From IMG/VR virus record IMGVR_UViG_3300042882_000911, positions 1 through 23,284 of that record: DNA of 23,284 nt, one strand, 5' to 3'. Shown in pieces: positions 5,638 through 23,284 of the stretch. Source of the DNA: a virus. The number at the start of each line of letters is the position of its first letter. Position 1 is the first letter of the stretch. A program made the translations under genes and the position numbers. The notes under the pieces are model-generated. The model did not search any database, was not told where the DNA came from, and saw only the letters and a list, made by a program, of their open reading frames with translations.

Positions 5638-5639
5638 GA

Positions 5640-5921: not shown

Positions 5922-5940
5922 GGTGTTTGGATTTTTGGGT

Positions 5941-6407: not shown

Positions 6408-7181
6408 TTAGAAGCTGCCGCCGTCGAAGCTGATGCCGTCGATGCTGCCGCCGGTGATGGCGACATTGTTGGCATTCTGCGTGGACATCGTGCCGAGTCC
6501 TGCTGCGGTGGTCTCCAAAGTGGAGACTCGGCCTGTGAGGGCTGTCGCTGCGGATTCGATGGAGTTGATGTCACCTTCGGCAGTTGACACACGGCCTGCA
6601 AGGGCTGTGGCTGCTGACTCGATGGCGTCGATGTCGCCTTCGGCTGTGGTGACGCGAGCGGCCAGAGCGGAGGCGTCGCCTTCGATGGTCGTGGCGCGGC
6701 TCTCAAGCGCGTTGATGTCGCTCTCTGCGGTGTCGAGGCGTCCGTCGAGGGCGCTGTCGGCTGCTTCGAGTGTCGCCACGGCCGAACTCAGAGCGCTGGA
6801 GGCGGAGTTGGCGAGGGTGGTTATCGCTCCGTTGAGGCTGGAGTCTGCGCTCTGGAAGGCGCTCACGACCTCCGTCAACGAATCAAGCGATCCTTGAGTC
6901 GTGTTCGATAGGACCGAATCAATTCGTGATCCGAGGGCTTGCTCCGCTGCGACTGCGCGGGAGTTTTCGGAGCTGATGCTGGAGTTCAGCGTCGAGACTT
7001 CGGAGGCGAGGTTTGCGTTGGTGGCATAGTGGCCACTGCCTGCTATGACAACTGAGGTCGAGCCATTGCCGATCCAAAGTTTGTCGTCTACGAAGCTATG
7101 GGCCAACTCGCCGAGAGCGAGGCCGGTAGGGGCACCGGAGGCACCTGTCAATCTGCGTTTAATTCTGAGGGTATTAGCCAT
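6408..7181 (-). CDS. Tail fibre protein, Mtd-type N-terminus with coiled-coil shaft
   Basis: A 257-aa protein in three parts. Residues 1-45 (TLRIKRRLTGASGAPTG, GELAHSFVDDKLWIGNG) match the N-terminal domain of major-tropism-determinant-like fibres. Residues about 58-228 form a long coiled coil with 21-residue repeats (three heptads each), clearest as RVTTAEGDIDAIESAATALAG-like units at 176-196 and 197-217. The last 28 residues (TMSTQNANNVAITGGSIDGI) match a short C-terminal module common in phage fibres. It is likely a trimeric fibre or a fibre-trimerising linker. No C-type-lectin variable domain is present. The leader is AACCCCC followed by A-rich sequence, without a Shine-Dalgarno. Confidence 0.8.
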   Translation of the reverse strand: MANTLRIKRRLTGASGAPTGLALGELAHSFVDDKLWIGNGSTSVVIAGSGHYATNANLASEVSTLNSSISSENSRAVAAEQALGSRIDSVLSNTTQGSLDSLTEVVSAFQSADSSLNGAITTLANSASSALSSAVATLEAADSALDGRLDTAESDINALESRATTIEGDASALAARVTTAEGDIDAIESAATALAGRVSTAEGDINSIESAATALTGRVSTLETTAAGLGTMSTQNANNVAITGGSIDGISFDGGSF

Positions 7182-7219
7182 GATTTTTTGGGGGTTGGGT
7201 TGTTACTGCGGGGTTAGTC

Positions 7220-7492
7220 CTAAAACTCACCGCCGTCGGAATCGGCGACGATGGGTAGATAGGAAAGGGTTTCGACATCCCATCGGTGCGGGACATTATT
7301 GTCGGCGGAAAAATAGATGCGGGCGACGACGCCTTCGGCGGGGAAATCGGCGAGGGTCGGGAACCGCTGCACATCGTCGAAGTCGTCCGGGATCATCGAG
7401 CTGGAAACTTGGCCCGAGGAGTCGAGCTGCGCGACCTGAGCGGTGGTGCTGACCATATTTCCGGTTAGGGGATCGAACGAAATTTGCGACAT
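7220..7492 (-). CDS. Small fibre or head-fibre-like protein
   Basis: A 90-aa protein whose second half has FPAEGVVARIYFSADNNVPHRWD. This is close to the pattern LP-x-G-x-x-G-x-IY-x-x-x-D-T-N-x-x-YRW found in many phage fibre and appendage proteins. The first half contains QVAQLDSSGQVSSSMIP, another common fibre linker pattern (LDSxGxVPxxxLP). It probably forms a virion appendage module. The ATG shares one base with the TAA of the gene upstream (TAATG). Confidence 0.7.
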   Translation of the reverse strand: MSQISFDPLTGNMVSTTAQVAQLDSSGQVSSSMIPDDFDDVQRFPTLADFPAEGVVARIYFSADNNVPHRWDVETLSYLPIVADSDGGEF

Positions 7493-7779
7493 TACGCGAA
7501 GGGAGGATACTGGATGAACGAGGTTTGAACCTGGGCATTGTCGGTCGCGGGAACGCCACCGAAATAGGTCATTCTGATGCGGGCGACTGCGGTTCCGGTA
7601 AAACTGTATTCGGTGTAATCGGTGTTGTTGGTGGCCCCGACTTTGAAGACTTCAAATTTGTCGTAGAGAGGAAGCGCAAATCCGGTGGTGACTCGCAGAG
7701 CCCCATCTGGGGTGGCTTGCACGGGCTGCACGATGCCCGAGGAGGAACGGGCGGCGATCTGGACGGTGGGGTTGCTCAT
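7492..7779 (-). CDS. Unknown 95-aa protein after the adaptor gene
   Basis: A 95-aa, mostly beta-predicted protein (SNPTVQIAARSSSGIVQPVQ, then FTGTAVARIRMTYFGG) without catalytic motifs. It follows the adaptor gene and precedes the fibre-type genes, so a small structural role such as capsid decoration, neck or fibre attachment is plausible but unproven. Unlike its neighbours, its start is not coupled to the upstream gene: a 38-bp gap with a TTGACA-containing element precedes it. Confidence 0.7.
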   Translation of the reverse strand: MSNPTVQIAARSSSGIVQPVQATPDGALRVTTGFALPLYDKFEVFKVGATNNTDYTEYSFTGTAVARIRMTYFGGVPATDNAQVQTSFIQYPPFA

Positions 7780-7811
7780 GTCGTTAATTTAATTATGGGG
7801 AAGGTTGTCAA
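7780..7811 (-). promoter_or_regulatory. TTGACA-N9-ATAATT element before the 95-aa gene
   Basis: On the minus strand TTGACA (7811-7806), nine C-rich bases, then ATAATT (7796-7791), with the ATG 11 bases later. It is intergenic. The same arrangement precedes the gene starting at 14385, with six of nine spacer bases identical. The 9-base spacing does not fit an ordinary sigma-70 promoter. Confidence 0.35.
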
Positions 7812-7817
7812 TGGTGG

Positions 7818-8765
7818 TTATTGGAAGCGGGCGGAGTAGGTGCGGACTTGGCCTCGGCGCAACCAGGCGTCGTCCATGCGTTGCATCAGGACGCCCTCGG
7901 CGCGGACAAATTGGAATTGGCTTTTGTCGTATTGGCCGTCCTCGGCGAGCGTCTCGGCGATGCTGTAGAATTTGATGTAGTCCGCAAGGAAGGTGGGGAT
8001 GCGGTGGCGGAGCCAGAAATCGGCAGACGTTGGGAGGTTGCTGGTCGTGGCTTGAAGGGCCTCGTAGCAGTCGCCGGTTGTGTTGTAGTAAACCAAGTCG
8101 CCCTTGCTGTAGCTGGTGCTCGCGTTAAATGCGGAGCTGGTGAAGGACGGCACAGGAAGAGCAAACTCCACATAGACAGGACCGCTGGTGTAAGCCTCGT
8201 CGATGATGACGATATTGTCGTCCGTGGTGACAAACTGGAGCTTCTGCGAAATGCCGTATCCGCTCGGGTTATTGGCATACACTGCCGAGACAGCGCCAAT
8301 GGGTGTGGCCCCGGATTGGTAAAAAGGAATGTAGGGCAAGGCATCGCCTGCCGCCTCGTTGCCAGAGTCCTCCACATAAGCGGCCGAGGTGCGGTTATCC
8401 CATGCCGCATCGGTGGCGGTGTCAATATTTGTGACCTCGCCCGAAGCGGTCGTGAGCACGCGCTTGATACGCCAGACGTCCTCAGAAAAAAGCGCCCCCT
8501 GCACAGCGCGGCCAATGTAGGAAGTCGTCCCTTGGTAGTCGGCCTCGTAAGTGTAGCCACCCTCGGCAAAACCCGCGCCAAGCACGATCCGCTGCTCTGT
8601 GTGCGTGATCTCTGGCCAATCAAAAAAGCCCCAAGCCAGCGACGCAGCAGTCGTCGCATACTCGGCAACCGCCGCCGCCTGCGAAGGCAGCAAACTCTGC
8701 TCGGGATCAATGCCCATGCGCTGAATCACACCATCACGAATCGTGCGGTAGGGAGTGGTCTTCAT
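7818..8765 (-). CDS. Head-to-tail adaptor-like protein with CBM5/12-like insert
   Basis: A 315-aa protein encoded directly after the portal gene, coupled by ATGA. The helical N-terminus (about 1-50) and C-terminus (about 255-315, including FLADYIKFYSIAETLAEDGQYD) with a beta-rich middle suit a neck or adaptor protein that docks beneath the portal. Residues about 212-253 (YSKGDLVYYNTTGDCYEAL, then a Pro and DFWLRH) match the spacing of chitin-binding CBM5/12-type modules: Y-x-x-GD-x-V-x-Y, Y-x-AL, W. Such modules occur in phage structural proteins and may bind polysaccharide. The adaptor role is inferred mainly from position. Confidence 0.7.
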   Translation of the reverse strand: MKTTPYRTIRDGVIQRMGIDPEQSLLPSQAAAVAEYATTAASLAWGFFDWPEITHTEQRIVLGAGFAEGGYTYEADYQGTTSYIGRAVQGALFSEDVWRIKRVLTTASGEVTNIDTATDAAWDNRTSAAYVEDSGNEAAGDALPYIPFYQSGATPIGAVSAVYANNPSGYGISQKLQFVTTDDNIVIIDEAYTSGPVYVEFALPVPSFTSSAFNASTSYSKGDLVYYNTTGDCYEALQATTSNLPTSADFWLRHRIPTFLADYIKFYSIAETLAEDGQYDKSQFQFVRAEGVLMQRMDDAWLRRGQVRTYSARFQ

Positions 8766-10858
8766 TGCTGCGGGCCGGATTGTTGCAACGCTGGCAGGGT
8801 GCCTTGACGGCCGATCTGGGCGTTTTGTTGTTGCTGCATTTGGAAGTTGAAGCCCTTCATGCGGGCCTCGATCATCGAGCGGAATATCTCATCTTGCTGG
8901 AGGCGTTGTTGCAGGGCGGGGTTGGCTTGGATGATGCCTTGCAGGACTTGGGCGCGGAGTTGGTGGTTTTGGCCTTCGCCTGGTAATTCCGGCTCGGTGC
9001 CTGCTGCGATCTTTGTGAAGGCGAGTTGTTCTTCGTTGGACTCGGCGGCGGCGGCGGGGCCGGGGTCGCGGACGAGGAGCTCGGCGAGGTTTGGATCCAC
9101 TGCGGCCATCACAAATTTGACGAGCCCGGCGCGGTCGATGACACCGGCGACATCCATAGGGACGATGGCTTGGGAGATATAGTTAAGCTTCACGCCGAGG
9201 GCTACGGCGTCGAGGTTCTTGGCGTCCCAATCAATGATGAGGTCGAACTTGCCTTGGATGCTTTCGCGGTCGGCTTGGAAAGGGAGAGCCTGCCCGCCGG
9301 AGACGCGGAGGATTTGCACGGGCAGCATGTATTGCTGCATGAGCTGGTAGGTCTGGGTGATGATGGCTTTGAAATCGCGGAGCCAGCGGTCCACCGTGTG
9401 CTGGGTGACGAGGGCAACATAGTTGGGATCGACCCCCTCGCCCGACATTCCAAAGTATTCGTTCACATCGCGGCGCACGGCGCGTTCGATCTCGACGGTG
9501 CCCTGGTCAAAGGGCGGAGGCTGCATCCAGCCAAACTCATTTGGTCGGCGCTCGGGGATTTGCGCGGCTGGGCCGAGGATGATGTCGAGCTTGCCGCGAT
9601 TGGCTGGCACGCGCATGGGGGGCAGGATGGCGATTCCGGCGCGGTCGGTGCGGTAGTCGCGCTGGGTTTTGATCTCAGCCTGCATGGTCGAAACAATCTC
9701 GGGGATGCCACGGGCTTCGAGGATGCAACGGCTCACGCGCTCGCGGGGCAGCTCGATGAAGGGATATTCGCCGTGCGTGTAGGGGGAGAGTTCTTCCTTG
9801 GCGAAGATGTCCACATTCGGGTGCATGACGCGGCACATGACCTTTGTCGCGCCGGTCTTCTCGTCGGTCTCCTTTGAGTAAACATGCCAAATCTCGATGA
9901 GGTCGCGGTGGTCTTGCCAGAGAATGCTGTCGCGGCGGTTGTGGTTCTGCTGCGAATAGACGGGCCAGAGGCTTGCGCCTTTGAATTGCTCGGCCTTCTC
10001 GTAAAATTCCTCTGGGTAGCCTTCGGTAAGTGTGCGCTCTTCGAGCTCCTCGCAAGTCACCATTTCGCGGCGGGCGATCCATGGGGCGCGTTGGAGGTCG
10101 TAGGTTGCGGTGGGGAAGATGATGTCGTTGAATGGCTCGAGCGCCGTCCACTCGGGCTTGCTCTCAAAGATGTATGGCACCGAGTATTCTACCGTGCCGC
10201 CTTCGCGGAGCTTGCGGATATTGGCGGCGGTGCCGGTGCCGGGGGCATATTGCTCGGCAAGCTCGATGGCGACTTCCTCTTGGAGCGGATCGAGGATGGC
10301 CCCGATGAGCATGGCGAGCGGCGAGTTTGGGTCGCCTTGCTCTTGGGCCATGACGATGATGTCTTCGAGGCTGACGGACTTCTCCTCAATGCGGGTCGTG
10401 GTTTTCCAAAACACGCCCATCACAGCAAGGCCGTAGGTGGCGCGGATGTTGAGGGCGAGCTCGAGCTCGCGCCGGAGGTCGGAGGAGCAGTGCGTGAAGA
10501 GCATCCACTTCAGCACGCTCTCGGCGGCCGTGCGCGACATGGCGTCGGTGGACTCCACCGGCATCATCTGCAAGCGGGCGGCGAAGGTGGAGGTGAGGCA
10601 AAGCTGTGTCTCGCGGTTGCAAACAAGGTCGGCGAGGCGGATACGGGCATCTGATGCGCCTTCCCAGGGGAAAACATTTTTGCCCAGGTTGCTGGCCCAC
10701 TTGCGGCCATCCGAGGACTGGCCGTCCCACAGCGTCATGCGGGTGTCGTAGTTCCGGCTGCGGACTGCGGAGAACCAGCTACCATCCATGGCGGCTTGGG
10801 TGAGCTCGCCGATCCAATACTTCGTATTGCGTGAGGGCTCTTCGTCGTAGGACTTCAT
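8762..10858 (-). CDS. Portal protein
   Basis: A 698-aa protein of a size typical of large portal proteins from podovirus- and SU10-type phages. It forms the dodecameric ring at one vertex through which DNA enters and leaves. The N-terminal part (MKSYDEEPSRNTKYWIGELT, NVFPWEGASDARIRLADLV) and the segment around PYTHGEYPFIELPRERV to GIPEIVSTMQAEIKTQRDYR are characteristic of portal proteins. The C-terminal 70 residues are rich in Gln and Ala and probably helical (barrel or crown). It is coupled by ATGA to a 41-aa membrane protein upstream and to the adaptor downstream. Here the portal follows the capsid gene, whereas many phages place it between terminase and scaffold. Confidence 0.88.
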   Translation of the reverse strand: MKSYDEEPSRNTKYWIGELTQAAMDGSWFSAVRSRNYDTRMTLWDGQSSDGRKWASNLGKNVFPWEGASDARIRLADLVCNRETQLCLTSTFAARLQMMPVESTDAMSRTAAESVLKWMLFTHCSSDLRRELELALNIRATYGLAVMGVFWKTTTRIEEKSVSLEDIIVMAQEQGDPNSPLAMLIGAILDPLQEEVAIELAEQYAPGTGTAANIRKLREGGTVEYSVPYIFESKPEWTALEPFNDIIFPTATYDLQRAPWIARREMVTCEELEERTLTEGYPEEFYEKAEQFKGASLWPVYSQQNHNRRDSILWQDHRDLIEIWHVYSKETDEKTGATKVMCRVMHPNVDIFAKEELSPYTHGEYPFIELPRERVSRCILEARGIPEIVSTMQAEIKTQRDYRTDRAGIAILPPMRVPANRGKLDIILGPAAQIPERRPNEFGWMQPPPFDQGTVEIERAVRRDVNEYFGMSGEGVDPNYVALVTQHTVDRWLRDFKAIITQTYQLMQQYMLPVQILRVSGGQALPFQADRESIQGKFDLIIDWDAKNLDAVALGVKLNYISQAIVPMDVAGVIDRAGLVKFVMAAVDPNLAELLVRDPGPAAAAESNEEQLAFTKIAAGTEPELPGEGQNHQLRAQVLQGIIQANPALQQRLQQDEIFRSMIEARMKGFNFQMQQQQNAQIGRQGTLPALQQSGPQQ

Positions 10859-10980
10859 GCGAGGAAGGAGTTGCCAGAGGCCGCTTTTAATGCGGTTACG
10901 GCCAGCGCGTATGAAATGACCAGGGAAACAAGCCCCGCCGCAATGCGTGGACTGGCAAAAGTTGGGAAAATATCCATCAT
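10855..10980 (-). CDS. 41-aa single-span membrane protein
   Basis: A short gene joined by ATGA overlaps to the genes on both sides, which argues that it is real. The product has a hydrophobic segment (about 13-32, IAAGLVSLVISYALAVTALK) between a short N-terminus (MMDIFPTFASPR) and a polar tail. An alternative start 3 bases later would remove one Met. The function is unknown. A membrane microprotein between the capsid and portal genes could anchor procapsid assembly at the membrane, or it may only be co-expressed late. Confidence 0.6.
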   Translation of the reverse strand: MMDIFPTFASPRIAAGLVSLVISYALAVTALKAASGNSFLA

Positions 10981-11324
10981 GCTGCTTTGAGGCCCGGCAT
11001 GAGGAGCATGGTCTTGCCTGTGCCGCCGCACTTGACGACGCACTGGGGGTAGTTCCGCTTGAACCATGGGATAAAGTCTGGGTCGTTCCAGCAACCGGGG
11101 AGTTGCCAGTTCCAGAAATGATAAATCTGAGGGTCGATGGAGAGAGTCAAAGCGCCTACGCCTTCGATGGAGCGGAGGTCTTGCTTGGCGTGATCGGCGG
11201 CGATGAGGTGTTGGCGGGCGTCGGCCTGCACAGCCTTGGAGTTCCACTGGGCGAGGAGCTCGTTCTTTACGCCCTCGGCCACTTCGCCGGGGATATCGCT
11301 TAACGCTTCTTTGAGTATTTCCAT
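10977..11324 (-). CDS. Unknown 115-aa protein of the head region
   Basis: A 115-aa protein with an acidic helical N-terminus (MEILKEALSDIPGEVAEGVK) and a C-terminal part rich in Trp and Pro (YHFWNWQLPGCWND, FIPWFKRNYPQCVVKCGGTGKT). Despite the GGTGKT string it lacks the rest of a P-loop fold, so I do not call it an ATPase. It follows the terminator-like hairpin after the capsid gene and precedes the membrane microprotein, to which it is coupled by ATGA. It may be a minor head protein. Confidence 0.7.
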   Translation of the reverse strand: MEILKEALSDIPGEVAEGVKNELLAQWNSKAVQADARQHLIAADHAKQDLRSIEGVGALTLSIDPQIYHFWNWQLPGCWNDPDFIPWFKRNYPQCVVKCGGTGKTMLLMPGLKAA

Positions 11325-11390
11325 GTTAAAAAAGGGGAGCCCCGAGGCCGGTAGCCTGACACATGCAATGACCAGGCTACCGGCAGGGCT
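11325..11390 (-). terminator. Terminator after the major capsid gene
   Basis: A perfect 12-bp inverted repeat, GCCGGTAGCCTG (11347-11358) and CAGGCTACCGGC (11373-11384), with a 14-base loop. It is flanked by a further AGCCC/GGGCT pairing, and on the minus strand a CCCC then TTTTTT run (11335-11326) follows. It lies 11 bases after the capsid stop. It probably terminates part of the transcription so that capsid mRNA is more abundant than that of downstream genes. Confidence 0.8.
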
Positions 11391-11401
11391 GGGGGGCGGG
11401 A

Positions 11402-12412
11402 TTACGCAGTGGCTGCGAATTTTCCAAGAACCTGCGGGTTGCTCACTGCTACGCCGAAGATGGCGTCGCAGAAGCCACGGCGGCCACCGCCACGGTCTTC
11501 AAGCTCTTCCATCCGAGGTTTGCGATTGAAGCCGATGGAGAGGAGGTCCATGTCGAGCACATAACCACGGGCGGCCGAGACGGCTGCTGCCGCGCCGTGC
11601 GCGAGGTAGGTGGACACATGCAGTGACAGGATGCCGAAGTCGCCTTCGTAGATGTCGATGGTGTTCACGATTTTCTTCTCCGAGACGTTGGAGTTGAATG
11701 TGCGCACGCTGGACATGACGTTGGTCGATGCGCTCTGGGTTCGGATGAAGTTTGTGAACGCACGCTTGAGCGCGACGCCGCAAACGAGGTCGTAGTTTCG
11801 GCGAGCGCGGCGCACGCCGTAGATGGACTGAAGAACGTCGATGACGTTGTTCTCTGTGAGAGAAGTGGTGGCAGTCGTGTTGATCGAAGCGGCTGGGGTG
11901 CGGAAGTTGACATCCACTGCGGTAGCCAAATCAGACTGCGCGGTGGAGCTGATCCATGAGCCGACGCCACGGGTCTTGTAGGGGGCTGCGCCGGATTGCA
12001 CCTGGCTGTCGTTGTCGGAGCCCATGATGGCTTCGATGTCGATCTTCAGCTCAACAAGGGCCTTGGCAGCGGACTTGTTGAACGCTTGCTTTTTGCCAAC
12101 TCCTGCTAAATCAGAGACTTGCTCCACAAGGTCATCCACCTGGAACGCGCGTCTTACTTTCTGAATTCGGCCGCTGAGGAGGACGCGGTTGGCGTGCTGG
12201 TCGTCGAAGCTGGAAACGTCATCGTTAGCGAGGACACCTGCTGTCTGCGGGTCGTTGTAGCGGTCGGCTGGCCACTGAAAAAGAACATTTTGAGGCTCCT
12301 TTGCCTTCTTGCACATTGAAAACAAGGGGGTGTCGCCGGGTTCGATGAGGACCATTGCGTCGGAGAGATCTTCGCGTTGGCCTTTGACTGTAGTGATGGG
12401 GGTTGCTGCCAT
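11402..12412 (-). CDS. Major capsid protein, SU10-type
   Basis: A 336-aa protein of HK97-fold capsid size. The N-terminal segment VKGQREDLSDAMVLIEPGDTPLFSM, then a tryptophan-containing strand and SGRIQKVRRAFQVDDLVEQV, matches the pattern of the SU10-type major head protein family (DUF5309). That family forms the icosahedral shell. Unlike many HK97-fold proteins there is no N-terminal delta domain to cleave; the separate acidic protein encoded just upstream serves as the likely scaffold. A strong terminator follows. The leader (TTAACACCCCCAAAAC) lacks a Shine-Dalgarno, notable for what should be the most highly expressed gene. Confidence 0.88.
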   Translation of the reverse strand: MAATPITTVKGQREDLSDAMVLIEPGDTPLFSMCKKAKEPQNVLFQWPADRYNDPQTAGVLANDDVSSFDDQHANRVLLSGRIQKVRRAFQVDDLVEQVSDLAGVGKKQAFNKSAAKALVELKIDIEAIMGSDNDSQVQSGAAPYKTRGVGSWISSTAQSDLATAVDVNFRTPAASINTTATTSLTENNVIDVLQSIYGVRRARRNYDLVCGVALKRAFTNFIRTQSASTNVMSSVRTFNSNVSEKKIVNTIDIYEGDFGILSLHVSTYLAHGAAAAVSAARGYVLDMDLLSIGFNRKPRMEELEDRGGGRRGFCDAIFGVAVSNPQVLGKFAATA

Positions 12413-12448
12413 AATAGTGTTTTGGGGGTGTTAAGTTTTTTGGGTTGG

Positions 12449-13555
12449 TTAGTTGAAAAGTGAGGCGACGAAGTTTTCGGCGGCATCACGGTTTCCAGAT
12501 TTTTTAAGGGCTTCGAGCGGGTCGGATTGAGATTTGGTTTTGGGTGCGGCTGAGGGACTGACAACCTTGGGGGCCATGGCGGGCTTGGCTGCTGCGGTGG
12601 CGGCAGGTTTTGCCTTGGCTGTGGCGGCTTTCTTTTGGATGGCCTCGGCTTGCTGGAAGCGGAGGGCTTGGCCGCGTATGGCGTCGCCTATGACGAGTTC
12701 GAGGTTCGGCAGCTTGGCGATGCCGGGATACGCTTGCAGCGTAGCCATCATCATCTGCCGGGCTTGGGATTCTTCCTGGAACAACTCGGGGTAAACCTGC
12801 CGGGCTTCGTGCTGGAAACTCTCGCGCTGGGCGAGGTAGTTGCGGCGGGCGGGCTCTGCCTTGAGAATCTGGCGGGCTACTCGCAGGCGTTCTTGAAGCT
12901 CTTGCTTCGTGAACTTGCGCGTGCTGCCGTCTCCCATGGGCACTTCCACTTCGCCACCTTCGTAATCCGCCTTCGCAATGAGATCAGGCACATTGTCGAG
13001 CACGGTATTCGCTGCGGCGAGTCGGCTTTCGAGGGCTTCGGGCGTGGTGACATCCGCCAATGGGTCGGCGGCATCTTGCACCACGATAGGCTGGGCTCGG
13101 GTGAGCGCATCCTTGGCGGCGGCGAGTTCGGCTTGCAGGCTGGTGGCTTGCTCCTCGGCGCTTTTGGCACGGGCGGTGAGCTTGTCCACTCGCTTGGCGA
13201 GCTTCTTGACGGCGGGCGCTTCGGCAGACTCGGGGTCTTCCTCGGCGGGCTCCTCGTCGGCGTCTTCCTCGGCGGGGTCTTCGGGTTGTTCAGAATCTTC
13301 CGTGGAGTCGTCGGCATCCGTTTCCGGCGCGGCGGTTTCCTCGGGCTGATCCTCGGGGTTTATGTCAGTGGTGGTCTCATCCGCGTCTGTTTCCGGTATG
13401 GCCTCTGCGGCTTCCGGTGTCTCATCGATAGTCGGGAGTGTGATTCCCAAAGTTTCGATAACGTCGCCGATGCTTAGTGCTGTATCTTCCATGGTTTGTT
13501 GTGCGTCCAAGTCGCGGGTATGTGTCAGAACTGAGTCTGCGTGCGGGTCCGACAT
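12449..13555 (-). CDS. Capsid scaffolding protein
   Basis: A 368-aa protein placed immediately before the capsid gene. Residues about 45-114 are extremely acidic with repeated ETDAD and EDP-type motifs. Residues about 117-155 form a coiled coil (VKKLAKRVDKLTARAKSAEE). The C-terminal 80 residues include an Ala/Lys-rich hinge and end with DPLEALKKSGNRDAAENFVA and a short hydrophobic tip. This is the usual build of a phage scaffold, which directs capsid assembly and then leaves. The start is uncertain: an in-frame ATG at 13492 is also possible, and neither has a Shine-Dalgarno. Confidence 0.8.
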   Translation of the reverse strand: MSDPHADSVLTHTRDLDAQQTMEDTALSIGDVIETLGITLPTIDETPEAAEAIPETDADETTTDINPEDQPEETAAPETDADDSTEDSEQPEDPAEEDADEEPAEEDPESAEAPAVKKLAKRVDKLTARAKSAEEQATSLQAELAAAKDALTRAQPIVVQDAADPLADVTTPEALESRLAAANTVLDNVPDLIAKADYEGGEVEVPMGDGSTRKFTKQELQERLRVARQILKAEPARRNYLAQRESFQHEARQVYPELFQEESQARQMMMATLQAYPGIAKLPNLELVIGDAIRGQALRFQQAEAIQKKAATAKAKPAATAAAKPAMAPKVVSPSAAPKTKSQSDPLEALKKSGNRDAAENFVASLFN

Positions 13556-14385: not shown

Positions 14386-14415
14386 GCGACTTTTATTATA
14401 GGGGGCGGGTGTCAA
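14386..14415 (-). promoter_or_regulatory. TTGACA-N9-TATAAT element before the small HTH gene
   Basis: On the minus strand TTGACA (14415-14410), nine bases CCCGCCCCC, then TATAAT (14400-14395), with the ATG 9 bases later. It includes the terminase stop codon. Both hexamers are perfect but the spacing is far below 17. TATAAT alone could serve as a -10 box with a nearly leaderless transcript. Confidence 0.4.
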
Positions 14416-16115
14416 TAGCAGCCTCCTGGGCGGGCTCGCAGCATGGCGGGGTCTTCGTAGCCTACGCCGGAGAGCGTGATGTAGCGGAGGATGTCGATCC
14501 AATCTTTTGTCGCACCGCGTTTGCCGTCGGCACCGGTCCATGTCTTGAGCGCGTAGATGAGGTTTTTGCAGCGTTCGGAGATGTAGAGGCGCGGCGAGTT
14601 GAGGGCATCGACCGGCGCTTCCTCGTTGTAGGCAAGCCAATCGTTGATGAGCGTGACACCTTCCACGATGGCTTGCCCGCTGGTGGCGCGGAAGTCGAGC
14701 CCGATGCGGTCGCTGCATTGCTCGATGAGGGTTCGCACGCCTTCCTGCGTCATCGTCGGCGTATTGCCGTAGCGGCTATCCATCCAACGCTCGGCGGGCT
14801 CGGCGGAGTCGGCTTTCTCGGCGGCATCGATGATGCGCTTGTAATCCTCGAAGCCAAAACCGGCGCAGGCTTTTTGTGCTGGCCCAGGGCGGCCGTCTTG
14901 CAGCTTGCCATCCGCCTCGGCCCACGCGCCGGGATAGCCCACGCCCTCGATGTATTCGAGCTGGTCTGGCCACTCGCGGTAAATCCAGCACCGGCCATCC
15001 GGCGTGTAGCGGATCCAAAGCATGGCCCATGTCTTCCCCTCGCCAGGATCGACAAAGTGAAAGACCGTGCCATCCCCCGGCACCTTGTCGGCAGGCACCA
15101 CATGCACCGTGTCGCGGAATTTTGGGAACATGGACATCCTCGCCTTGGTCGGCACGCCGTAGGCACGCATGAGGATGCGCTCGCGGTTGCTGCCGCGCAG
15201 CTCGGTTTCCATGGCCTCGGGGTTGCCGTAGGGGTTGTCGGAGGTGTGGAAATAAACGACGCGGGCTTTCTCGCGGGTGCATTGCTGGCTGCGCGGCACT
15301 TGCTCCAAGCCGATCAAGTTGCCATCGCGGTAGCGCGGCAGGAGCGGGGCATCGACTTCCTCAAGCGTCTTCGCGCCGTCGAGGTATTCTTTGACGGTCG
15401 TTGTGTAGCCTTCAATCGGCGTAAAGCCAATACCCAGCTCGCCGTCGCGGGTGAGCAAACGGAAGCGCAGCGCCTCGATCCAATCCGGCGTCACCAATTC
15501 ATCGGCCCATACGAAATCCAACTCCGAGCCTTCGATAGAAGTGACATCCATGCTGTAAAATTTGAACCAACACTGCGAGCCATTCGGCAGCACCAGCGAG
15601 TTTTCGGTGAAGCCGCCTTTCTGCGAGTAGGTGATGTTTGCCACGCTGCCTTTTTTGAGTTTGCCACTTCCGGCCGGCCGCCATTCCTGCGGCAGATACT
15701 CCCAAATGTAGGGTTGCTGACTCTGGATTGACGCGGCCTCTGTGCTTTGCAGGCACCACACCTTTGCGCCGGGTTTGTTGACCAGGTGCTGCATGGCCCG
15801 CCGCGCATAGTAGCGCGACTTGCCCGAGCGGTTGCCGCCGAGGATGAGAAGCTCCGTGACGCCTTTGGGGAATTTTTCCCGCAGCTCCGAGAATGCGGCA
15901 TCCGCCCGCGCCCAAGCGGGATTCTCCCACCCGTAGCGCCAAGGGTCTTCGACCATGCGGGCAATCTGCTCCTCGCGCTCGCGGTGGATGGCGAGCAACT
16001 GCGCCTCGGTGGCTCCCAGGCGTTGCCCCCGATACTGCACGACAAAGGTGCCGTCGGGTCGGCGGCCCTCGATGACGATCTCTAAAATGACTGGGCTTTT
16101 GGTTTGAGGAATCAT
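14412..16115 (-). CDS. terL: Large terminase subunit
   Basis: A 567-aa packaging motor. The ATPase domain has Walker A GGNRSGKS (93-100) and Walker B DFVWADE (200-206, catalytic Glu206), with the coupling segment GIGFTPIEG near 229-236. The C-terminal nuclease domain has FVDPGEG (Asp356), a possible second acid at Asp446 (WMDSR) and a final WIDILRY (Asp541). This is the RNase H-like nuclease that cuts concatemers. The size is usual for the family. The ATG at 16115 overlaps the preceding stop by ATGA, so a longer upstream start is rejected. No recognisable small terminase gene is adjacent. Nearby packaging partners might be one of the small HTH proteins. Confidence 0.93.
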   Translation of the reverse strand: MIPQTKSPVILEIVIEGRRPDGTFVVQYRGQRLGATEAQLLAIHREREEQIARMVEDPWRYGWENPAWARADAAFSELREKFPKGVTELLILGGNRSGKSRYYARRAMQHLVNKPGAKVWCLQSTEAASIQSQQPYIWEYLPQEWRPAGSGKLKKGSVANITYSQKGGFTENSLVLPNGSQCWFKFYSMDVTSIEGSELDFVWADELVTPDWIEALRFRLLTRDGELGIGFTPIEGYTTTVKEYLDGAKTLEEVDAPLLPRYRDGNLIGLEQVPRSQQCTREKARVVYFHTSDNPYGNPEAMETELRGSNRERILMRAYGVPTKARMSMFPKFRDTVHVVPADKVPGDGTVFHFVDPGEGKTWAMLWIRYTPDGRCWIYREWPDQLEYIEGVGYPGAWAEADGKLQDGRPGPAQKACAGFGFEDYKRIIDAAEKADSAEPAERWMDSRYGNTPTMTQEGVRTLIEQCSDRIGLDFRATSGQAIVEGVTLINDWLAYNEEAPVDALNSPRLYISERCKNLIYALKTWTGADGKRGATKDWIDILRYITLSGVGYEDPAMLRARPGGCY

Positions 16116-16294
16116 GGCCGCCTCAGAAGGGGTTGCAAAATTTTCGCCTTTGTTTTGTAGCCAAGCCGCACGCAAGTTTCGTGAGCTTCGCGCAAAACAG
16201 CACTCTCAGGATAAACGCCCGTGATGCGGAAATACTTGGTTTGAACCCGCAAATCATCAGCGGATGTATGCACCAGACAATCTACCTCTTTCAT
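16112..16294 (-). CDS. Unknown 60-aa protein upstream of terL
   Basis: A 60-aa protein (MKEVDCLVHTSADDLRVQTK, then a basic end KTKAKILQPLLRRP). It has ATGA overlaps at both ends and so lies firmly in the reading chain into terL. No family was recognised. It is too short and lacks an HTH pattern to be called a small terminase. Confidence 0.7.
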   Translation of the reverse strand: MKEVDCLVHTSADDLRVQTKYFRITGVYPESAVLREAHETCVRLGYKTKAKILQPLLRRP

Positions 16295-17429: not shown

Positions 17430-18794
17430 TTATTTCTGCCTCTCGTTCTGGTTGTTGCTATAGAGTTTCTTTGTGACATTGCGGAATATGGTTTGTTGGC
17501 CTACGAAGTTGAGTTCTATCTCGGGCGTGGGGCCGTTTCGTTGCTTGGCGACGAGCAGCAAGGTGTTGTGCTCCATGGGCTCTTCGTCCTCGCCGCGTTT
17601 CTTGTTTTTGTCCAACCTGTGAATTAAGAGAACCGTATCAGCGTCTTGCTCGATGCTGCCCGATTCGCGGAGGTTGGAGAGCTTGGGCTTGGAGCCTTCG
17701 TCGGCGTCGCGGTTTAGCTGCGCCAGGGCGATGATCGGGACGTTGAGTTCCTTGGCTGTGGTCTTGAGCGCCTTGGAAATCTCGCTGACTTCCAGCGCCC
17801 GGCTCTCGCCTGCCCGCTTGGAGGATCCGTGCATGAATTGCAGGTAATCGACGACGATGAGGCCGAGTCCGTGGGCGGTCTTTGCCCGGCGGGCGCGGCT
17901 GCGGAACTGCGCGACGGTGAGGCCGGGCGTGTCGTCGAGGTAGAGCGGAGCCTTGGTGAGCTTCTGTGCGGCCATGCTGACGGTGTTCAAATCCTGCTGT
18001 TTGAAAAAACCGCTTCGAACGAGCTGAAGATCAAGGCCAGCCTCGGAACAAATGGCACGGACCATGAGTTCCGTGCTGGGCATTTCGACGGAGAAAACAA
18101 GCGTGGGCACATTGCTGGTATGGGCTGCGTGCAAAGCGATTTGCATCCCAAGAGCCGACTTGCCGCACGCGGGGCGGGCGGCGATGACGATCATTTGCCC
18201 GCCAAGAAATCCCCCTGTCGAGCGATCCAGATCATGGATGCCTGTGGCCAAACCAACGGTCTCGCCTCGGTTTGCATACACTTTTTCGATATGGTCAACG
18301 GCGGCCATTACAGCCGTCTTGCAGTGCGAGACGGGGTTTTCCCTTGTCGAGGTGTCTCGGAGGGCGTAGAGGGCCTGCTCGCAGCGTTCTTGGGCATCCT
18401 CTGTGGTGAGTGCAAAGTCGTTTGCCGCCTCGGCCATGGCGAGGGCCGCTTGGCGCATGGCCCGGCGTTTCCACACATCGAGCACCTCGGCAGCGTAGTG
18501 CCGCCAGTTCATCGTGATGGCGAGTTCCTGCACAAGCTCAGTGAGATAGGCGTAGCCGCCGCACTCCTCAAGCTGGCCAGCCTTCTCCAACTCGGTCGTG
18601 ACCAGGATGACATCCACCGGCCGGGCGCCCTGCCGCATGGCGGCGACAATGCCCATGATGCACTGGTGCGCGGGCAAGACAAATTGCTCAGGCGTGAGCG
18701 CTTCGAGCACGCTATCGGCCGTGCGGCCATCGCTCACCGCTGCGCCGACGACGGCCTTTTCGGCGATTTGATTTTCGGGAAGGGGGTTTCTCAT
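17430..18794 (-). CDS. dnaB: Replicative DNA helicase, DnaB type
   Basis: A 454-aa protein with the two domains of DnaB. The N-terminal helical domain spans about 5-105 (PENQIAEKAVVGAAV, then YLTELVQELAITMNWRHYAA). The C-terminal RecA-like domain has Walker A ARPACGKS (206-213), Walker B LIVVDYLQ (312-319), the AQLNR motif (358-362) and an arginine-finger region KQRNGPT (418-424). It unwinds DNA 5' to 3' at the fork. The ATG at 18794 overlaps the upstream stop by ATGA. A replication initiator is two genes upstream and could load it; no separate AAA+ loader is seen. Confidence 0.93.
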   Translation of the reverse strand: MRNPLPENQIAEKAVVGAAVSDGRTADSVLEALTPEQFVLPAHQCIMGIVAAMRQGARPVDVILVTTELEKAGQLEECGGYAYLTELVQELAITMNWRHYAAEVLDVWKRRAMRQAALAMAEAANDFALTTEDAQERCEQALYALRDTSTRENPVSHCKTAVMAAVDHIEKVYANRGETVGLATGIHDLDRSTGGFLGGQMIVIAARPACGKSALGMQIALHAAHTSNVPTLVFSVEMPSTELMVRAICSEAGLDLQLVRSGFFKQQDLNTVSMAAQKLTKAPLYLDDTPGLTVAQFRSRARRAKTAHGLGLIVVDYLQFMHGSSKRAGESRALEVSEISKALKTTAKELNVPIIALAQLNRDADEGSKPKLSNLRESGSIEQDADTVLLIHRLDKNKKRGEDEEPMEHNTLLLVAKQRNGPTPEIELNFVGQQTIFRNVTKKLYSNNQNERQK

Positions 18795-19117
18795 TTTTTG
18801 ATTCGGGCTGCGGCCATGGCGGTGGCCTTCCGGAGGTTCGATCCAAAGCCGAGAAGGTGGAAAACCTTGCAGCACACGGTCGGGTTCACCTCATGCCCGA
18901 GGAGGCGAAACATCTCCGTGCCGTCCGCGTTCACCATGGGCGAGCCATCGGGGTGCGTCATGGGGGCGTAGATGGGGTCATCCATGGGGCGGCTCTCATA
19001 GGTGCCGACCTGCCAGCAAAGGAAGTCATTGACACACTCCGCATTGTGCCGCGTCACGACACAGAATGCCTCCGTGTCGGTGGATTTAAGTTCAATCGTT
19101 TCGATTACGTTTATCAT
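18791..19117 (-). CDS. Unknown 108-aa protein between initiator and helicase
   Basis: A 108-aa protein from the ATG at 19117 (MINVIETIELKSTDTEAFCV). The middle, PIYAPMTHPDGSPMVNADGTEMF, looks like a beta-hairpin region, and the end is basic and helical. A start at 19165 would overlap the upstream gene and is rejected. The leader is A-rich without a Shine-Dalgarno. The function is unknown; its position between initiator and helicase, with ATGA coupling to the helicase, suggests a replication accessory role. Confidence 0.7.
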   Translation of the reverse strand: MINVIETIELKSTDTEAFCVVTRHNAECVNDFLCWQVGTYESRPMDDPIYAPMTHPDGSPMVNADGTEMFRLLGHEVNPTVCCKVFHLLGFGSNLRKATAMAAARIKK

Positions 19118-19133: not shown

Positions 19134-20036
19134 TTATGCTGCGGCTTGAGTGCGATGTTTTTCACGCACCCAAGCTTTCATGGAGTCAGGGAGAAGCGAC
19201 CAGGTGGAGAGGTTGCATTCGGGAAATTCAGAGGTCACAAGGTCTTGCCAGCCTTCCGGTTCAGCGGAGACTGCGGGTGCTGCCGAGAGGCTCATGCCCG
19301 AGCGGCCTGCCCAATCGCGGGCACGGGTCACCTCGGCGAGGATGTTGTTGAGAAGCGTGGATAAATCCTTGCGGCGGAACTGCGCGGCCGCGCCTTCTTT
19401 TTGCCGGTAGGCCCACTCCAGGAAGCGCCAATCCTCTTCGCTCACGTCCGCCGCCGCCTTTTTATTTTTCTCCCAAGCACGGGTGGCGGATGAGTCGAGA
19501 GGTGTCTCGGCTCGAATGTGGAAGAGGTTTCGGAAGCGGGTGAGGACAGGATGCGGTGGTGCCGGTGTCGGTTCGCATTCCATGACCAACTCGATGTCCC
19601 CTTGGGGACTTATAGGGGTATTATCTATTCTATTCTTATTTAGGTCATCGCCCCGTGATATGGCCGTCATATCGGTTGTATGACGGTCTGATGACGAGCC
19701 TCTATATTTTGATGACGCTTTAGCCATCACTGCGCGTCTTTTTGCAGACGCTCCATTATGCTCATCGAAGCGTGCAATCTCCACGCCATCTTCATCTTCC
19801 AAAATCCAACCGACTTTTACCAAGGCGGCTCCAAGTCCTTTCAAGCCCGTCTTGCGGTCGATAGCTCCGAGGGAGAGCCCTTCCAGCCGTCCATCCGTGC
19901 TCTGCTCGTCGGCCATTGACCATATCCAATACAGCCCGCCGATGACCTCGCGCTCGGGCTTGTTTGTGATGTCGCAAATCTTGGCGATCCGAGGATCGTC
20001 CCAAAGGTTACTGCGCATTTTTATCCAGTTTGACAT
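19134..20036 (-). CDS. Phage replication initiator with winged-helix N-terminus
   Basis: A 300-aa protein. The N-terminus (SNWIKMRSNLWDDPRIAKIC, then REVIGGLYWIWSMADEQS and LVKVGWILEDEDGVEIARFD) is the winged-helix domain typical of phage replication proteins that bind the origin or help load DnaB. A flexible linker (about 100-170) follows, then a helical C-terminal domain (RAWEKNKKAAADVSEEDWRF, STLLNNILAEVTRARDW). The ATG at 20036 is preceded by an A-rich leader. It is encoded two genes ahead of the helicase, which supports the role. The origin itself was not identified with confidence. Confidence 0.8.
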   Translation of the reverse strand: MSNWIKMRSNLWDDPRIAKICDITNKPEREVIGGLYWIWSMADEQSTDGRLEGLSLGAIDRKTGLKGLGAALVKVGWILEDEDGVEIARFDEHNGASAKRRAVMAKASSKYRGSSSDRHTTDMTAISRGDDLNKNRIDNTPISPQGDIELVMECEPTPAPPHPVLTRFRNLFHIRAETPLDSSATRAWEKNKKAAADVSEEDWRFLEWAYRQKEGAAAQFRRKDLSTLLNNILAEVTRARDWAGRSGMSLSAAPAVSAEPEGWQDLVTSEFPECNLSTWSLLPDSMKAWVREKHRTQAAA

Positions 20037-20038
20037 AC

Positions 20039-20251
20039 TTATTTTTTCTTTCTTTTTTGAAGCTGCGAATCCCACCAAACGCTCCGAGTGCGGACGCCTC
20101 GACTTTCCAACCAACGGTCGCAAGCAGCCGAGATCGCCCGGCTGTCGCGCACAGAGAGCCAACCCACCCGCGCATCGTCAGGCCCGAGGGCTTGCTCCGA
20201 TTTATCTTGGCGGGGGTGTTGCTGGTGTAGGTCCAATTCAATGCCTCTCAT
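20039..20251 (-). CDS. Unknown 70-aa basic protein
   Basis: A 70-aa protein whose ATG overlaps the exonuclease stop by ATGA. A competing frame (20008-20241) lacks any such link, so this one is preferred. The product contains WLSVRDSRAISAACDRWLES and ends in Gln-Lys-Arg-Lys-rich residues. It is basic and may bind nucleic acid. The stop is 2 bases before the initiator start. Confidence 0.65.
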   Translation of the reverse strand: MRGIELDLHQQHPRQDKSEQALGPDDARVGWLSVRDSRAISAACDRWLESRGVRTRSVWWDSQLQKRKKK

Positions 20252-22064: not shown

Positions 22065-22289
22065 CTATGTGATCGAAGCAACCCAAGGCTTCCGGCCCGG
22101 CCTCAAATACACAGAGCCCCCAATGCGGCCCTCCTCGAGCACCCGCTTGATGCTGGATTCCGGAATTAAAATGCGATCCCCGAGGCGGACATGCGGGAAT
22201 GTCCCATCGTAGAGGCGCGACTGAACTGCCGATCTCGACAGGCTCAGGAGCTTGACGAGCTGCGCCGGTGAATAATGCTGCTCGATCAT
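22065..22289 (-). CDS. Excisionase/AlpA-type HTH protein
   Basis: A 74-aa protein: MIEQHYSPAQLVKLLSLSRS, then AVQSRLYDGTFPHVRLGDRI and LIPESSIKRVLEEGR. This is the MerR-like HTH plus wing (helix-17 type) seen in excisionases and small phage activators. The ATG at 22289 overlaps the upstream stop by ATGA, so a longer upstream start is rejected. Without an integrase in view it is better treated as a regulator than as an excisionase. Confidence 0.8.
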   Translation of the reverse strand: MIEQHYSPAQLVKLLSLSRSAVQSRLYDGTFPHVRLGDRILIPESSIKRVLEEGRIGGSVYLRPGRKPWVASIT

Positions 22290-22393
22290 TCCCCGATCCT
22301 CCAGGCTACGAGAGCCAAAAAAGCCGCAGGCCCGAGGGCGCAAAACGCCTCCCAGGTCCAAGTAATGTAGTGGATGGCATCAGGGGTGATCAT
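22286..22393 (-). CDS. 35-aa single-span membrane microprotein
   Basis: A 35-codon gene with ATGA overlaps at both ends. The product has a polar N-terminus and a hydrophobic segment (about 15-32, AFCALGPAAFLALVAWRI), one probable membrane span. No family. It is in the first coupled block after the regulator, so an early membrane role such as superinfection exclusion is possible, though unproven. Confidence 0.55.
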   Translation of the reverse strand: MITPDAIHYITWTWEAFCALGPAAFLALVAWRIGE

Positions 22394-22536
22394 TTGTCCA
22401 CCTCCACGGAAAACGGCCGCAATCCGAAAATTTCAAAAAAACGCGCCTGCGCAGCCTCCCGGCTCGAGGCGTCCACGTAGTCGCCAAACGGACCCCGAAA
22501 CGGATCCACAGCCCGGCAATAAAAGCGACGGCTCAT
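22390..22536 (-). CDS. 48-aa microprotein
   Basis: A 48-codon gene with ATGA overlaps at both ends. The product contains RRFYCRAVDPFRGPFGDYVD and SREAAQARFFEIFG, a pattern like small phage proteins with a beta-hairpin and one helix. No function is known. Confidence 0.6.
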   Translation of the reverse strand: MSRRFYCRAVDPFRGPFGDYVDASSREAAQARFFEIFGLRPFSVEVDK

Positions 22537-22724
22537 AGTTGACCTCCATGATTCCCGACAACATCAGACTTTGTCTGACCGTCAGGGCGCAAAAAACGCA
22601 GCAACGCTAAACGCACCACATCAGAATTGCTGCACAAACGCCGCTTGGCTTCGTCGGCCAGCAGCCCACCGAGCGTCTCAGGGAGTCGCGCAGAGAGTTT
22701 TATTTCTTTATTTGATGTTTTCAT
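22533..22724 (-). CDS. Ribbon-helix-helix regulator, leftward gene
   Basis: A 63-aa protein with the ribbon-helix-helix pattern: KEIKLSARLPETLGGLLADE (beta strand and helix A), then SNSDVVRLALLRFL (helix B). It is a dimeric DNA-binding fold of the Arc/CopG/MetJ type. It is the first gene of the long leftward operon and is transcribed away from another RHH gene. One of the two 13-bp palindromes lies 15 bp upstream of its ATG, suggesting self-repression or cross-repression. The C-terminal tail (DGQTKSDVVGNHGGQL) is encoded by DNA holding a third, weaker palindrome. Confidence 0.8.
   Translation of the reverse strand: MKTSNKEIKLSARLPETLGGLLADEAKRRLCSNSDVVRLALLRFLRPDGQTKSDVVGNHGGQL
22564..22578. 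promoter_or_regulatory. Possible third, degenerate operator
   Basis: TCAGACTTTGTCTGA is an inverted repeat with 6-base arms and a 3-base centre, inside the leftward RHH gene. Its 13-bp core matches the intergenic palindromes at 9 of 13 positions. Confidence 0.3.
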
Positions 22725-22739
22725 CTTTGCCGACCTTGT

Positions 22740-22752
22740 CCGACAATGTCGG
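22740..22752. promoter_or_regulatory. Operator palindrome, left copy
   Basis: CCGACAATGTCGG, a perfect palindrome around one central A, 15 bp upstream of the leftward RHH start. A direct repeat of CCGAC begins 10 bp away at 22730, giving an extra half-site on the same helical face. Confidence 0.75.
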
Positions 22753-22800
22753 GTATGTCAAGTAGGGAATAATACTTATTTGCAACCCGCCCTTTTGTGT

Positions 22801-22813
22801 CCGACACTGTCGG
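22801..22813. promoter_or_regulatory. Operator palindrome, right copy
   Basis: CCGACACTGTCGG, identical to the left copy except at the central base. It ends 7 bp before the ATG of the rightward RHH gene and would cover that gene's leader. Confidence 0.75.
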
Positions 22814-22820
22814 GGTGAAA

Positions 22821-23132
22821 ATGCTAAAAACTAAAAAAATCGATGTTCGTTTAGATCAAGAGCTTTTCGATTTGGTTGACAATTACGCAAAATCTTCGCG
22901 CCTCAGCCGTGCTCAAGTAGTAGAGCGGGCCTTATTACAATTATTTGGACGGCCTGTAATGGATAACCCAATTACCCAGGGAAACGCCGCGCCCCTCAAA
23001 TCTTCGCAAAAATCATCAAGCAAACCGTCCAATGTCTCCCCTCCTGTTGGTGCCGAAATAGCGACTATCAACGAACCTTTAGACTCTGGGTCCGCGCCAG
23101 CGAGACGCCCGAGCTCCCGCCAGGCTGGTTAG
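22821..23132 (+). CDS. Ribbon-helix-helix regulator, rightward gene
   Basis: A 103-aa protein from the ATG at 22821, the only plus-strand gene. KKIDVRLDQELFDLVDNYAK and SSRLSRAQVVERALLQLFG form the RHH domain (about 4-45). The remainder is a Ser/Pro-rich, probably disordered tail. A GTG at 22797 would begin inside the right palindrome and is rejected. The coding DNA is visibly more AT-rich at its start than the leftward operon and uses more A/T-ending codons, suggesting a separate history. Divergence from the other RHH gene and shared operators suggest a repressor or switch protein. An antitoxin is possible, but no toxin gene is next to it. Confidence 0.8.
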   Translation: MLKTKKIDVRLDQELFDLVDNYAKSSRLSRAQVVERALLQLFGRPVMDNPITQGNAAPLKSSQKSSSKPSNVSPPVGAEIATINEPLDSGSAPARRPSSRQAG

Positions 23133-23150: not shown

Positions 23151-23284
23151 CCAGCCACCAGCCACCAGCCACCAGCCACCAGCCACCAGCCACCAGCCAC
23201 CAGCCACCAGCCACCAGCCACCAGCCACCAGCCACCAGCCACCAGCCACCAGCCACCAGCCACCAGCCACCAGCCACCAGCCAC
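23151..23284. repeat. 7-bp tandem array, GCTGGTGG on the minus strand
   Basis: The unit CCACCAG is repeated without error: 18 complete copies (23155-23280) plus partial units at each end, running off the right edge. Each unit with the next base reads GCTGGTGG on the minus strand, the E. coli Chi octamer, so there are 18 overlapping copies. It is the last feature and could continue outside the window. Heptad-coded frames in it are not genes. Confidence 0.95.

What the first reader, a model, noticed from the sequence alone, without database searches (positions are those of the whole stretch)
22533..23132. Two divergent RHH regulators sharing mirrored 13-bp operators
Two different ribbon-helix-helix proteins are transcribed away from each other across a 96-bp spacer. 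The spacer has two palindromes, CCGACAATGTCGG and CCGACACTGTCGG, identical but for the centre and one near each start codon. A third, weaker copy lies in the leftward gene. This has the layout of a lambda cI/cro-type switch, but built from RHH proteins on both sides. Seen: proteins, sites and geometry. Inferred: mutual or self-repression controlling the leftward lytic operon.
Basis: partly seen in the sequence, partly recalled or inferred. Interest (0 to 1): 0.72.

Follow-up and report, generated by a model that had tools for sequence, protein, structure and literature searches.

The report
Paired RHH regulators sharing phage operators
A group of apparently temperate phages, probably of Verrucomicrobiota, carries two small back-to-back ribbon-helix-helix regulator genes with the same short DNA sites in front of each, which looks like a lysis-or-lysogeny switch built without the usual lambda-type repressors.

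Summary
Two CCGACA-N-TGTCGG palindromes (22740-22752, 22801-22813) lie between two divergent small genes; 0 of 20000 spacer shuffles gave a repeated palindrome. All 11 related viral contigs found keep the pair. In 9 distinct records the left operator is a double site, two GACAnnGTC units 10 bp apart, with 14 of 14 key bases invariant. The right operator is one unit plus a half-site and has lost a palindrome arm in 3 of 9. A core between them is 24/27 invariant, the rest of the spacer 9/42. The start shared by all nine rightward genes is GTG 22815 (90-bp spacer), but 7 of 9 also have an in-frame start 18 nt upstream. In three long relatives a weakly scoring integrase lies downstream on the rightward side; leftward lie excisionase-like, replication and terminase genes. 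HTH_3 over cut-off, S24 and ParA-type families were not found there. Best reading: a lysis/lysogeny switch of two RHH proteins reading the same units. It works like lambda cI/cro and resembles P22 Mnt/Arc, but fits neither. Binding, promoters and site occupancy are inferred.

The parts
22533..22724 (-). Leftward RHH-like gene (63 aa), first gene before the replication/terminase genes; strand KLSARLPE with invariant K9, S11, R13
   Evidence: invariant in 9 aligned records; hhalign to rightward family; AF2 coil-helix-helix, Foldseek/VIA hits all RHH entries but weak
22815..23132 (+). Rightward RHH_1 (CopG-type) gene, 105 aa from the shared GTG start; strand KIDVRL with invariant K, D, R; variable tail. 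An alternative in-frame start is GTG 22797
   Evidence: PF01402 over cut-off (relatives); GTG at 90/91 bp from the leftward ATG in 9 of 9 distinct records, another in-frame start 18 nt upstream in 7 of 9
22730..22752 (.). O_L: double site CCGACCTTGTCCGACAATGTCGG, two GACAnnGTC-type units 10 bp apart, just upstream of the leftward start codon
   Evidence: 14 of 14 GACA/GTC positions invariant in 9 distinct records; 0 mismatches to GACANNGTCNGACANNGTC on the leftward strand
22797..22813 (.). O_R: single unit CCGACACTGTCGG (22801-22813) plus outer half-site GTGTC; ends 1 bp before GTG 22815
   Evidence: 5 of 7 unit positions invariant; palindrome arm lost in L013, L021, L022; outer NTGTC kept in 7 of 9, lost in L009 and L012
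22756..22782 (.). Conserved AT-rich core TGTCAAGTAGGGAATAATACTTATTTG between the two sites; may hold the promoter elements
   Evidence: 24 of 27 columns invariant against 9 of 42 in the rest of the spacer; the core was delimited by eye after seeing the alignment
22756..22761 (-). Candidate -35 (TTGACA) of the leftward promoter; a -10 17 bp on would lie inside O_L
   Evidence: TTGACA 31-32 nt before ATG in 9 of 9; inferred, the -10 is poor and the sigma-70 scan found no promoter
22780..22785 (+). Candidate -35 (TTGCAA) of the rightward promoter; a -10 17 bp on would lie inside O_R
   Evidence: 28-30 nt before GTG 22815 in 9 of 9, TTTGAA instead of TTGCAA in one; inferred, no promoter in the scan
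22555..22579 (.). O3: third, weaker array CCGACAACATCAGACTTTGTCTGAC in the 3' end of the leftward gene; possible only
   Evidence: wobble positions rank 13 of 166 windows but overall conservation only 53 of 166
22065..22361 (-). HTH_17 / excisionase-like DNA-binding protein on the leftward side
   Evidence: PF12728 over cut-off; TIGR01764 below cut-off; phrog_66 E 8.7e-4
19134..20162 (-). Replication initiator (phrog_2509); further left DnaB (17430-18875) and terminase large subunit (14412-16175), same strand

Best explanation
This is the immunity/lysis-lysogeny control region of a temperate tailed phage. SHOWN: two divergent genes (one RHH_1, one RHH-like), an operator-like array at each start, and opposite gene sets (excisionase-like, replication and packaging genes leftward; integrase downstream on the rightward side in relatives). 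INFERRED: each dimer of an RHH protein recognises one 10-bp unit GACAnnGTC with its antiparallel beta-ribbon. O_L, with two helically phased units, is filled cooperatively and shuts off the leftward lytic operon. O_R, with one unit and a half-site, is weaker and shuts off the rightward lysogeny operon. The rightward protein, made with the integrase, is the likely lysogenic repressor (cI-like) and tunes its own gene through O_R. The leftward protein, first made in lytic growth, is the likely Cro/CopG-like partner that limits its own operon and blocks the rightward one. O3 inside the leftward gene may add a roadblock or looping site.
For: All 11 related contigs found keep the pair, and both family profiles return the same 11 (partly circular, see full report). 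CNGACANTGTCNG occurs exactly twice per record in 10 of 10 records scanned, including three of 41-43 kb, always in this spacer; reversed control pattern 0 (the other 2 contigs were not scanned and depart by single bases). O_L 14/14 and core 24/27 invariant against 9/42 for the rest. Integrase downstream on the rightward side in G002, G003 and G006; excisionase-like, replication and terminase genes leftward. No HTH_3 over cut-off, no S24, no AAA_31 in 3 of 3. PHROG matches of the rightward protein include repressors (phrog_876 E 1.2e-5). The DNA-contact strand is invariant in both families. One natural hybrid (L011) joins the rightward gene of one lineage to the leftward gene of another (L gene 95% to L012, R gene 57%).
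Against: No binding or expression data. The O_R palindrome has lost an arm in 3 of 9 records and its outer half-site in 2 of 9. In 7 of 9 an upstream in-frame start would place O_R inside the rightward gene. The two proteins have different central contact residues (S against D) and may not read the same sequence. No sigma-70-type promoter passes the scan. The leftward protein has no family hit and its fold matches are individually insignificant. Integrase scores are weak (only G002 just over Pfam's cut-off). No integrated copy of this phage group was found.
Confidence: 0.58

Rival explanations
1. One-master version: only one of the two RHH proteins (most likely the leftward one, as a CopG-like autorepressor of the replication operon) binds the GACAnnGTC units; the other acts elsewhere or on the core.
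For: O_L is the most constrained site. CopG represses the copG-repB operon of pMV158-family plasmids (PMC6607859, passages), and here too an RHH gene heads a gene set with a replication initiator. O_R decays in 3 of 9 while both genes stay.
Against: O_R lies 1 bp before GTG 22815 and keeps one GTC half in 9 of 9; both families keep a K-x-R contact strand; the integrase sits on the rightward side.
Confidence: 0.27
2. Partition/centromere or toxin-antitoxin function: the RHH proteins are a centromere binder or antitoxins, and the repeats a small centromere or an autoregulatory TA operator.
For: RHH proteins commonly do this; PMC9658697 reads a phage RHH protein as part of a segregation system (passage). 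Many of the 50 listed PDB fold neighbours of the rightward model are antitoxins.
Against: No ParA-type AAA_31 in 3 of 3 long records (ParM/TubZ not searched); no toxin family named among the neighbouring ORFs scanned (PADLOC not run); an integrase is present.
Confidence: 0.08
3. Chance or composition: the palindromes are incidental.
For: Loose matches (up to 3 mismatches) are scattered over the window, 27 in all, though that too exceeds 100 of 100 shuffles. Identical-arm pairs within 100 bp arise in 2 of 300 whole-window shuffles.
Against: 0 of 20000 spacer shuffles; conservation in relatives.
Confidence: 0.02

Closest known systems
Salmonella phage P22 immI (Mnt and Arc)
   Same: Two RHH repressors in one phage: Mnt represses arc and ant, Arc inhibits mnt (PMC11016777, passages). 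Divergent orientation with operators between is recalled.
   Different: immI is a secondary region that governs the antirepressor ant, discussed as an 'ant moron' of the late operon (PMC2629481, passages). Here the pair heads the replication genes and faces the integrase side, with the same site at both starts; Mnt and Arc use different operators (recalled).
Lambda cI/cro switch (recalled)
   Same: Divergent regulators between lysogenic and lytic operons, shared palindromic operators near both promoters.
   Different: Lambda proteins are HTH with a self-cleaving cI; here the regulators are RHH-type and no S24 match was found in 3 of 3 long relatives.
CopG of pMV158-family plasmids
   Same: Small RHH protein at the head of a replication operon (PMC6607859, passages); CopG chains are among the fold neighbours of both models.
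   Different: CopG has no divergent RHH partner (recalled) and serves plasmid copy control.
MetJ with tandem met boxes (recalled)
   Same: Adjacent palindromic boxes, one dimer each, cooperative loading.
   Different: MetJ boxes are 8 bp apart and need a corepressor; here units are 10 bp apart.

Membership tests
Ribbon-helix-helix superfamily (rightward protein) | strand-helix-helix domain matching RHH_1 | tested here: met
   PF01402 21.9 bits, cut-off 20.5; of 3 relatives scanned 2 over it (23.4, 23.9) and 1 below (16.7); H15-28, H32-44 in AF2, mean pLDDT 62.1
Ribbon-helix-helix superfamily (leftward protein) | strand-helix-helix domain | tested here: inconclusive
   No Pfam/NCBIfam hit; hhalign to rightward family E 5.8e-5, probability 66%; 19 of 19 Foldseek hits RHH entries but E 2.3-9.4; VIA Z up to 4.2. 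Leans to yes.
Lambda-type cI/cro switch | divergent regulators between lytic and integrase-bearing sides with shared sites | tested here: met
   integrase side seen in 3 relatives, not in the window, which ends in a repeat array
Lambda-type cI/cro switch | HTH-type repressors, cI with S24 self-cleavage domain | tested here: not met
   HTH_3 over cut-off 0 of 3 (sub-threshold in 2 of 3, within another early gene); S24 0 of 3
P22 immI module | two divergent RHH regulators | tested here: inconclusive
   Divergent pair shown; RHH shown for the rightward protein, leaning for the leftward
P22 immI module | location in the late region | tested here: not met
   The pair heads the replication genes
P22 immI module | linked antirepressor gene ant | tested here: inconclusive
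   None named among the neighbouring ORFs scanned; not every ORF was scanned and no Ant family was searched for
RHH operator of MetJ/Arc/CopG type | protein dimers bind the palindromic units | not testable with these tools
   needs EMSA or footprinting
ParA-type plasmid partition | ParA-type motor in the genome | tested here: not met
   AAA_31 0 of 3 long records

The most novel reading that the evidence does not exclude
A complete lysis/lysogeny master switch made only of two RHH proteins that compete for the same 10-bp GACAnnGTC units (double site on the lytic side, one and a half on the lysogenic side), with both transcripts starting at or next to the start codon, and with halves exchangeable between phages by recombination through the conserved promoter core. 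It would be the primary immunity system of a temperate phage group of Verrucomicrobiota, with no SOS-cleavable repressor.
Probability: 0.33. Interest if true: 0.7.

Novelty: new variant of a known kind. Interest (0 to 1): 0.5.

Why it matters
If true, it shows that the divergent-repressor logic of lambda can be rebuilt with beta-ribbon DNA binders as the main immunity system, in a little-studied host phylum. Both proteins are small, the intergenic region is about 90 bp, and natural variants and one natural hybrid exist. That makes a compact model for how two repressors that read the same sites set a bistable decision, and for how such a phage is induced without a self-cleaving repressor.

Tried and rejected
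Chance palindromes: rejected for O_L/O_R, not firmly for O3. Leaderless transcripts from lack of Shine-Dalgarno: both genes lack an SD-like 4-mer in 9 of 9 records, while the next small gene (22390-22536) has one in 9 of 9; but 12 of 15 other window ORFs that I picked (mechanical starts) lack it too, so it says little. Consensus sigma-70 promoters: 0 found. Relatives in annotated phages: rightward protein none at E 0.1; leftward protein one hit at E 0.8, taken as noise; spacer DNA none. Single-sequence search with the rightward protein reached only 2 contigs, with the leftward 9. Bacterial genomes: leftward profile none in genome contigs, 0 of 387 genomes of G010's phylum at E 1e-6 (no positive control, so it shows little). 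A loose hit in G010 (E 0.0024) is in a 71-aa ORF followed by a 134-aa ORF, which reads to me like an antitoxin-toxin pair, not this pair. Rightward profile in 5 genomes with a related capsid: 1 of 5, two loose hits, not followed. The more distant prophage-like region in G138 has another arrangement. Sequence search of solved structures: leftward best E 0.48 (a designed protein), rightward best E 0.034 (an antitoxin). Phage C75C1 has a distantly similar terminase and capsid; its regulators were not compared. Literature: in the listings of six searches (three of them capped, 15 of 20, 25 of 217 and 20 of 38 listed) I saw no other divergent RHH pair proposed as a main lysogeny switch; apart from six papers seen as passages I saw titles and abstract starts only.

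Full report
WHAT IS THERE. The window is a 23,284-base virus record. At its right end two small genes point away from each other. The leftward one (22533-22724, minus strand, 63 aa) and the rightward one (to 23132) are separated by a spacer holding CCGACAATGTCGG (22740-22752) and CCGACACTGTCGG (22801-22813). These are the only matches with at most one mismatch in the window. They are the only repeated pair among the 15 palindromes of 6-bp arms (centre 0-2) in the window. A repeated palindrome appeared in 0 of 20000 dinucleotide shuffles of the spacer (at least one palindrome in 1049 of them), and within 100 bp in 2 of 300 shuffles of the whole window.

THE PROTEINS. The rightward protein is RHH_1 (PF01402, 21.9 bits, cut-off 20.5) and matches phage repressor PHROGs (phrog_876 E 1.2e-5). 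The leftward one has no Pfam or NCBIfam hit. Its family profile aligns with the rightward family over 42 columns with the strand in register, KLSARL against KIDVRL (hhalign E 5.8e-5, probability 66%). Its AlphaFold model (mean pLDDT 66.6) is coil-helix-helix, and 19 of 19 Foldseek hits are entries I know as RHH proteins (Arc, CopG, CdbA, MatP, VapB, ORF56, AmrZ), each weak on its own (E 2.3-9.4; VIA Z at most 4.2). The rightward model shows the same layout. I take both as RHH; for the leftward one no single test is significant by fold.

RELATIVES. The leftward profile and the rightward profile each return the same 11 viral contigs. This is partly circular, because the rightward profile was built from contigs found with the leftward gene; what it does show is that neither gene turned up without the other. 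Single sequences reached fewer (2 and 9). All 11 keep the divergent pair. Two contigs are identical to the window here and two are identical to each other, which leaves 9 distinct records for counting (dropped: L005, L006, L010). In the 10 records first scanned, window included, CNGACANTGTCNG occurs exactly twice per record, always in this spacer, and the reversed control pattern never. In one of them (G009/L013) both matches are the two overlapping units of the left site. L021 and L022 were found later, were not in that scan, and depart by single bases.

ANATOMY OF THE SITES. Over 9 distinct records the left site is two GACAnnGTC units 10 bp apart, 14 of 14 key positions invariant. A 27-bp core, delimited by eye after seeing the alignment, is 24 of 27 invariant. 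The right unit is 5 of 7 invariant and the remaining spacer 9 of 42. In L013, L021 and L022 the right palindrome has lost an arm but keeps TGTCGGACA (leftward strand); in L009 and L012 the palindrome is whole but the outer half-site is gone. So the left operator is a double site under strong constraint and the right one a weaker site. The third site, in the 3' end of the leftward gene, has wobble positions more conserved than most (rank 13 of 166 windows) but ordinary overall conservation (53 of 166). I hold it as possible only.

START CODON AND PROMOTERS. In 7 of 9 another in-frame start codon lies 18 nt upstream of that GTG (window GTG 22797; ATG in three, TTG in three), where it overlaps the outer half-site NTGTC; from there the right site would lie inside the gene. 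I prefer GTG 22815 because it is the one start common to all, but the other is not excluded. TTGACA lies 31-32 nt before the leftward ATG in 9 of 9, and TTGCAA (TTTGAA in one) 28-30 nt before GTG 22815. If these are -35 elements, each -10 falls inside an operator and the transcripts start at or near the start codons. This is geometry, not proof: a consensus scan found no promoter, and lack of Shine-Dalgarno is common in this window (12 of 15 other ORFs picked).

CONTEXT. Leftward lie an HTH_17/excisionase-like gene, an exonuclease, a phrog_2509 replication initiator, DnaB and terminase. The window stops in a 7-bp repeat array after the rightward gene, so longer relatives were used. G003 and G006 have direct end repeats (123 and 127/283 bp) and look complete; G002 ends just past the rightward gene, and its first bases carry the genes that follow that gene in G003, so I read it as a circle cut at the repeat (inferred). 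In all three a tyrosine recombinase lies about 4-5 kb downstream on the rightward strand, convergent with the end of the late genes (PF00589 E 3.1e-6, 6.1e-5, 7.9e-5, only the first, G002, just over cut-off). That it is in one operon with the rightward gene is inferred. HTH_3 over cut-off, S24 and ParA-type AAA_31 were not found in these three. Host: the capsid protein has an 86% identical relative in a MAG labelled Verrucomicrobia bacterium REEB449, and weaker ones in 4 further of 387 genomes of that phylum. The MAG contig is 3,155 bp, so binning error is possible; the same genome holds a second capsid relative.

A NATURAL HYBRID. L011 has a leftward gene 95% identical to L012 but a rightward gene only 57% identical to it, against 87% to the window and L007. 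The exchange point lies in or near the spacer, so either rightward type is found with that leftward type and its site.

INTERPRETATION AND NOVELTY. The best reading is a lysis/lysogeny switch made of two RHH proteins, with a stronger double operator on the lytic side. It works like lambda cI/cro but is not filed as a member (no HTH/S24 repressor found). It shares with P22 immI two RHH repressors, which there repress each other's genes (PMC11016777, passages), but differs in position and role, since immI is described as a late-operon module that controls an antirepressor (PMC2629481, passages). In six literature searches (listings, some capped, plus passages of six papers) I saw no other such pair proposed as a main immunity switch; the library lacks most subscription journals. 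The contacts K-S-R and K-D-R are inferred from RHH architecture as recalled.

Noticed in passing
window 23151-23284: Perfect 19-copy array of the 7-mer CCAGCCA right after the rightward RHH gene; the two near-identical contigs also end close to this point, probably assembly breaks.
   Followed up: partly
G003 27207-28301, G002 4334-5458, G006 27952-29148: Tyrosine recombinases with weak PF00589 scores; the alignment suggests Tyr in place of the usual His of the HxxR motif (motif recalled).
   Followed up: partly
G002 5522-12565, G003 20868-27143, G006 29145-35912: Giant ORFs of 2091-2347 aa at the end of the late genes, convergent with the integrase, unassigned.
   Followed up: no
L010 2936-3880 (minus): DUF932 protein downstream of the rightward gene in one relative, where G003 carries a RadC-like JAB protein.
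   Followed up: no
G138:C1 about 3061500-3094600: Distantly related prophage-like region (terminase, portal, capsid, integrase relatives) in a genome of G010's phylum, with an RHH-like ORF nearby in a differently arranged early region.
   Followed up: partly
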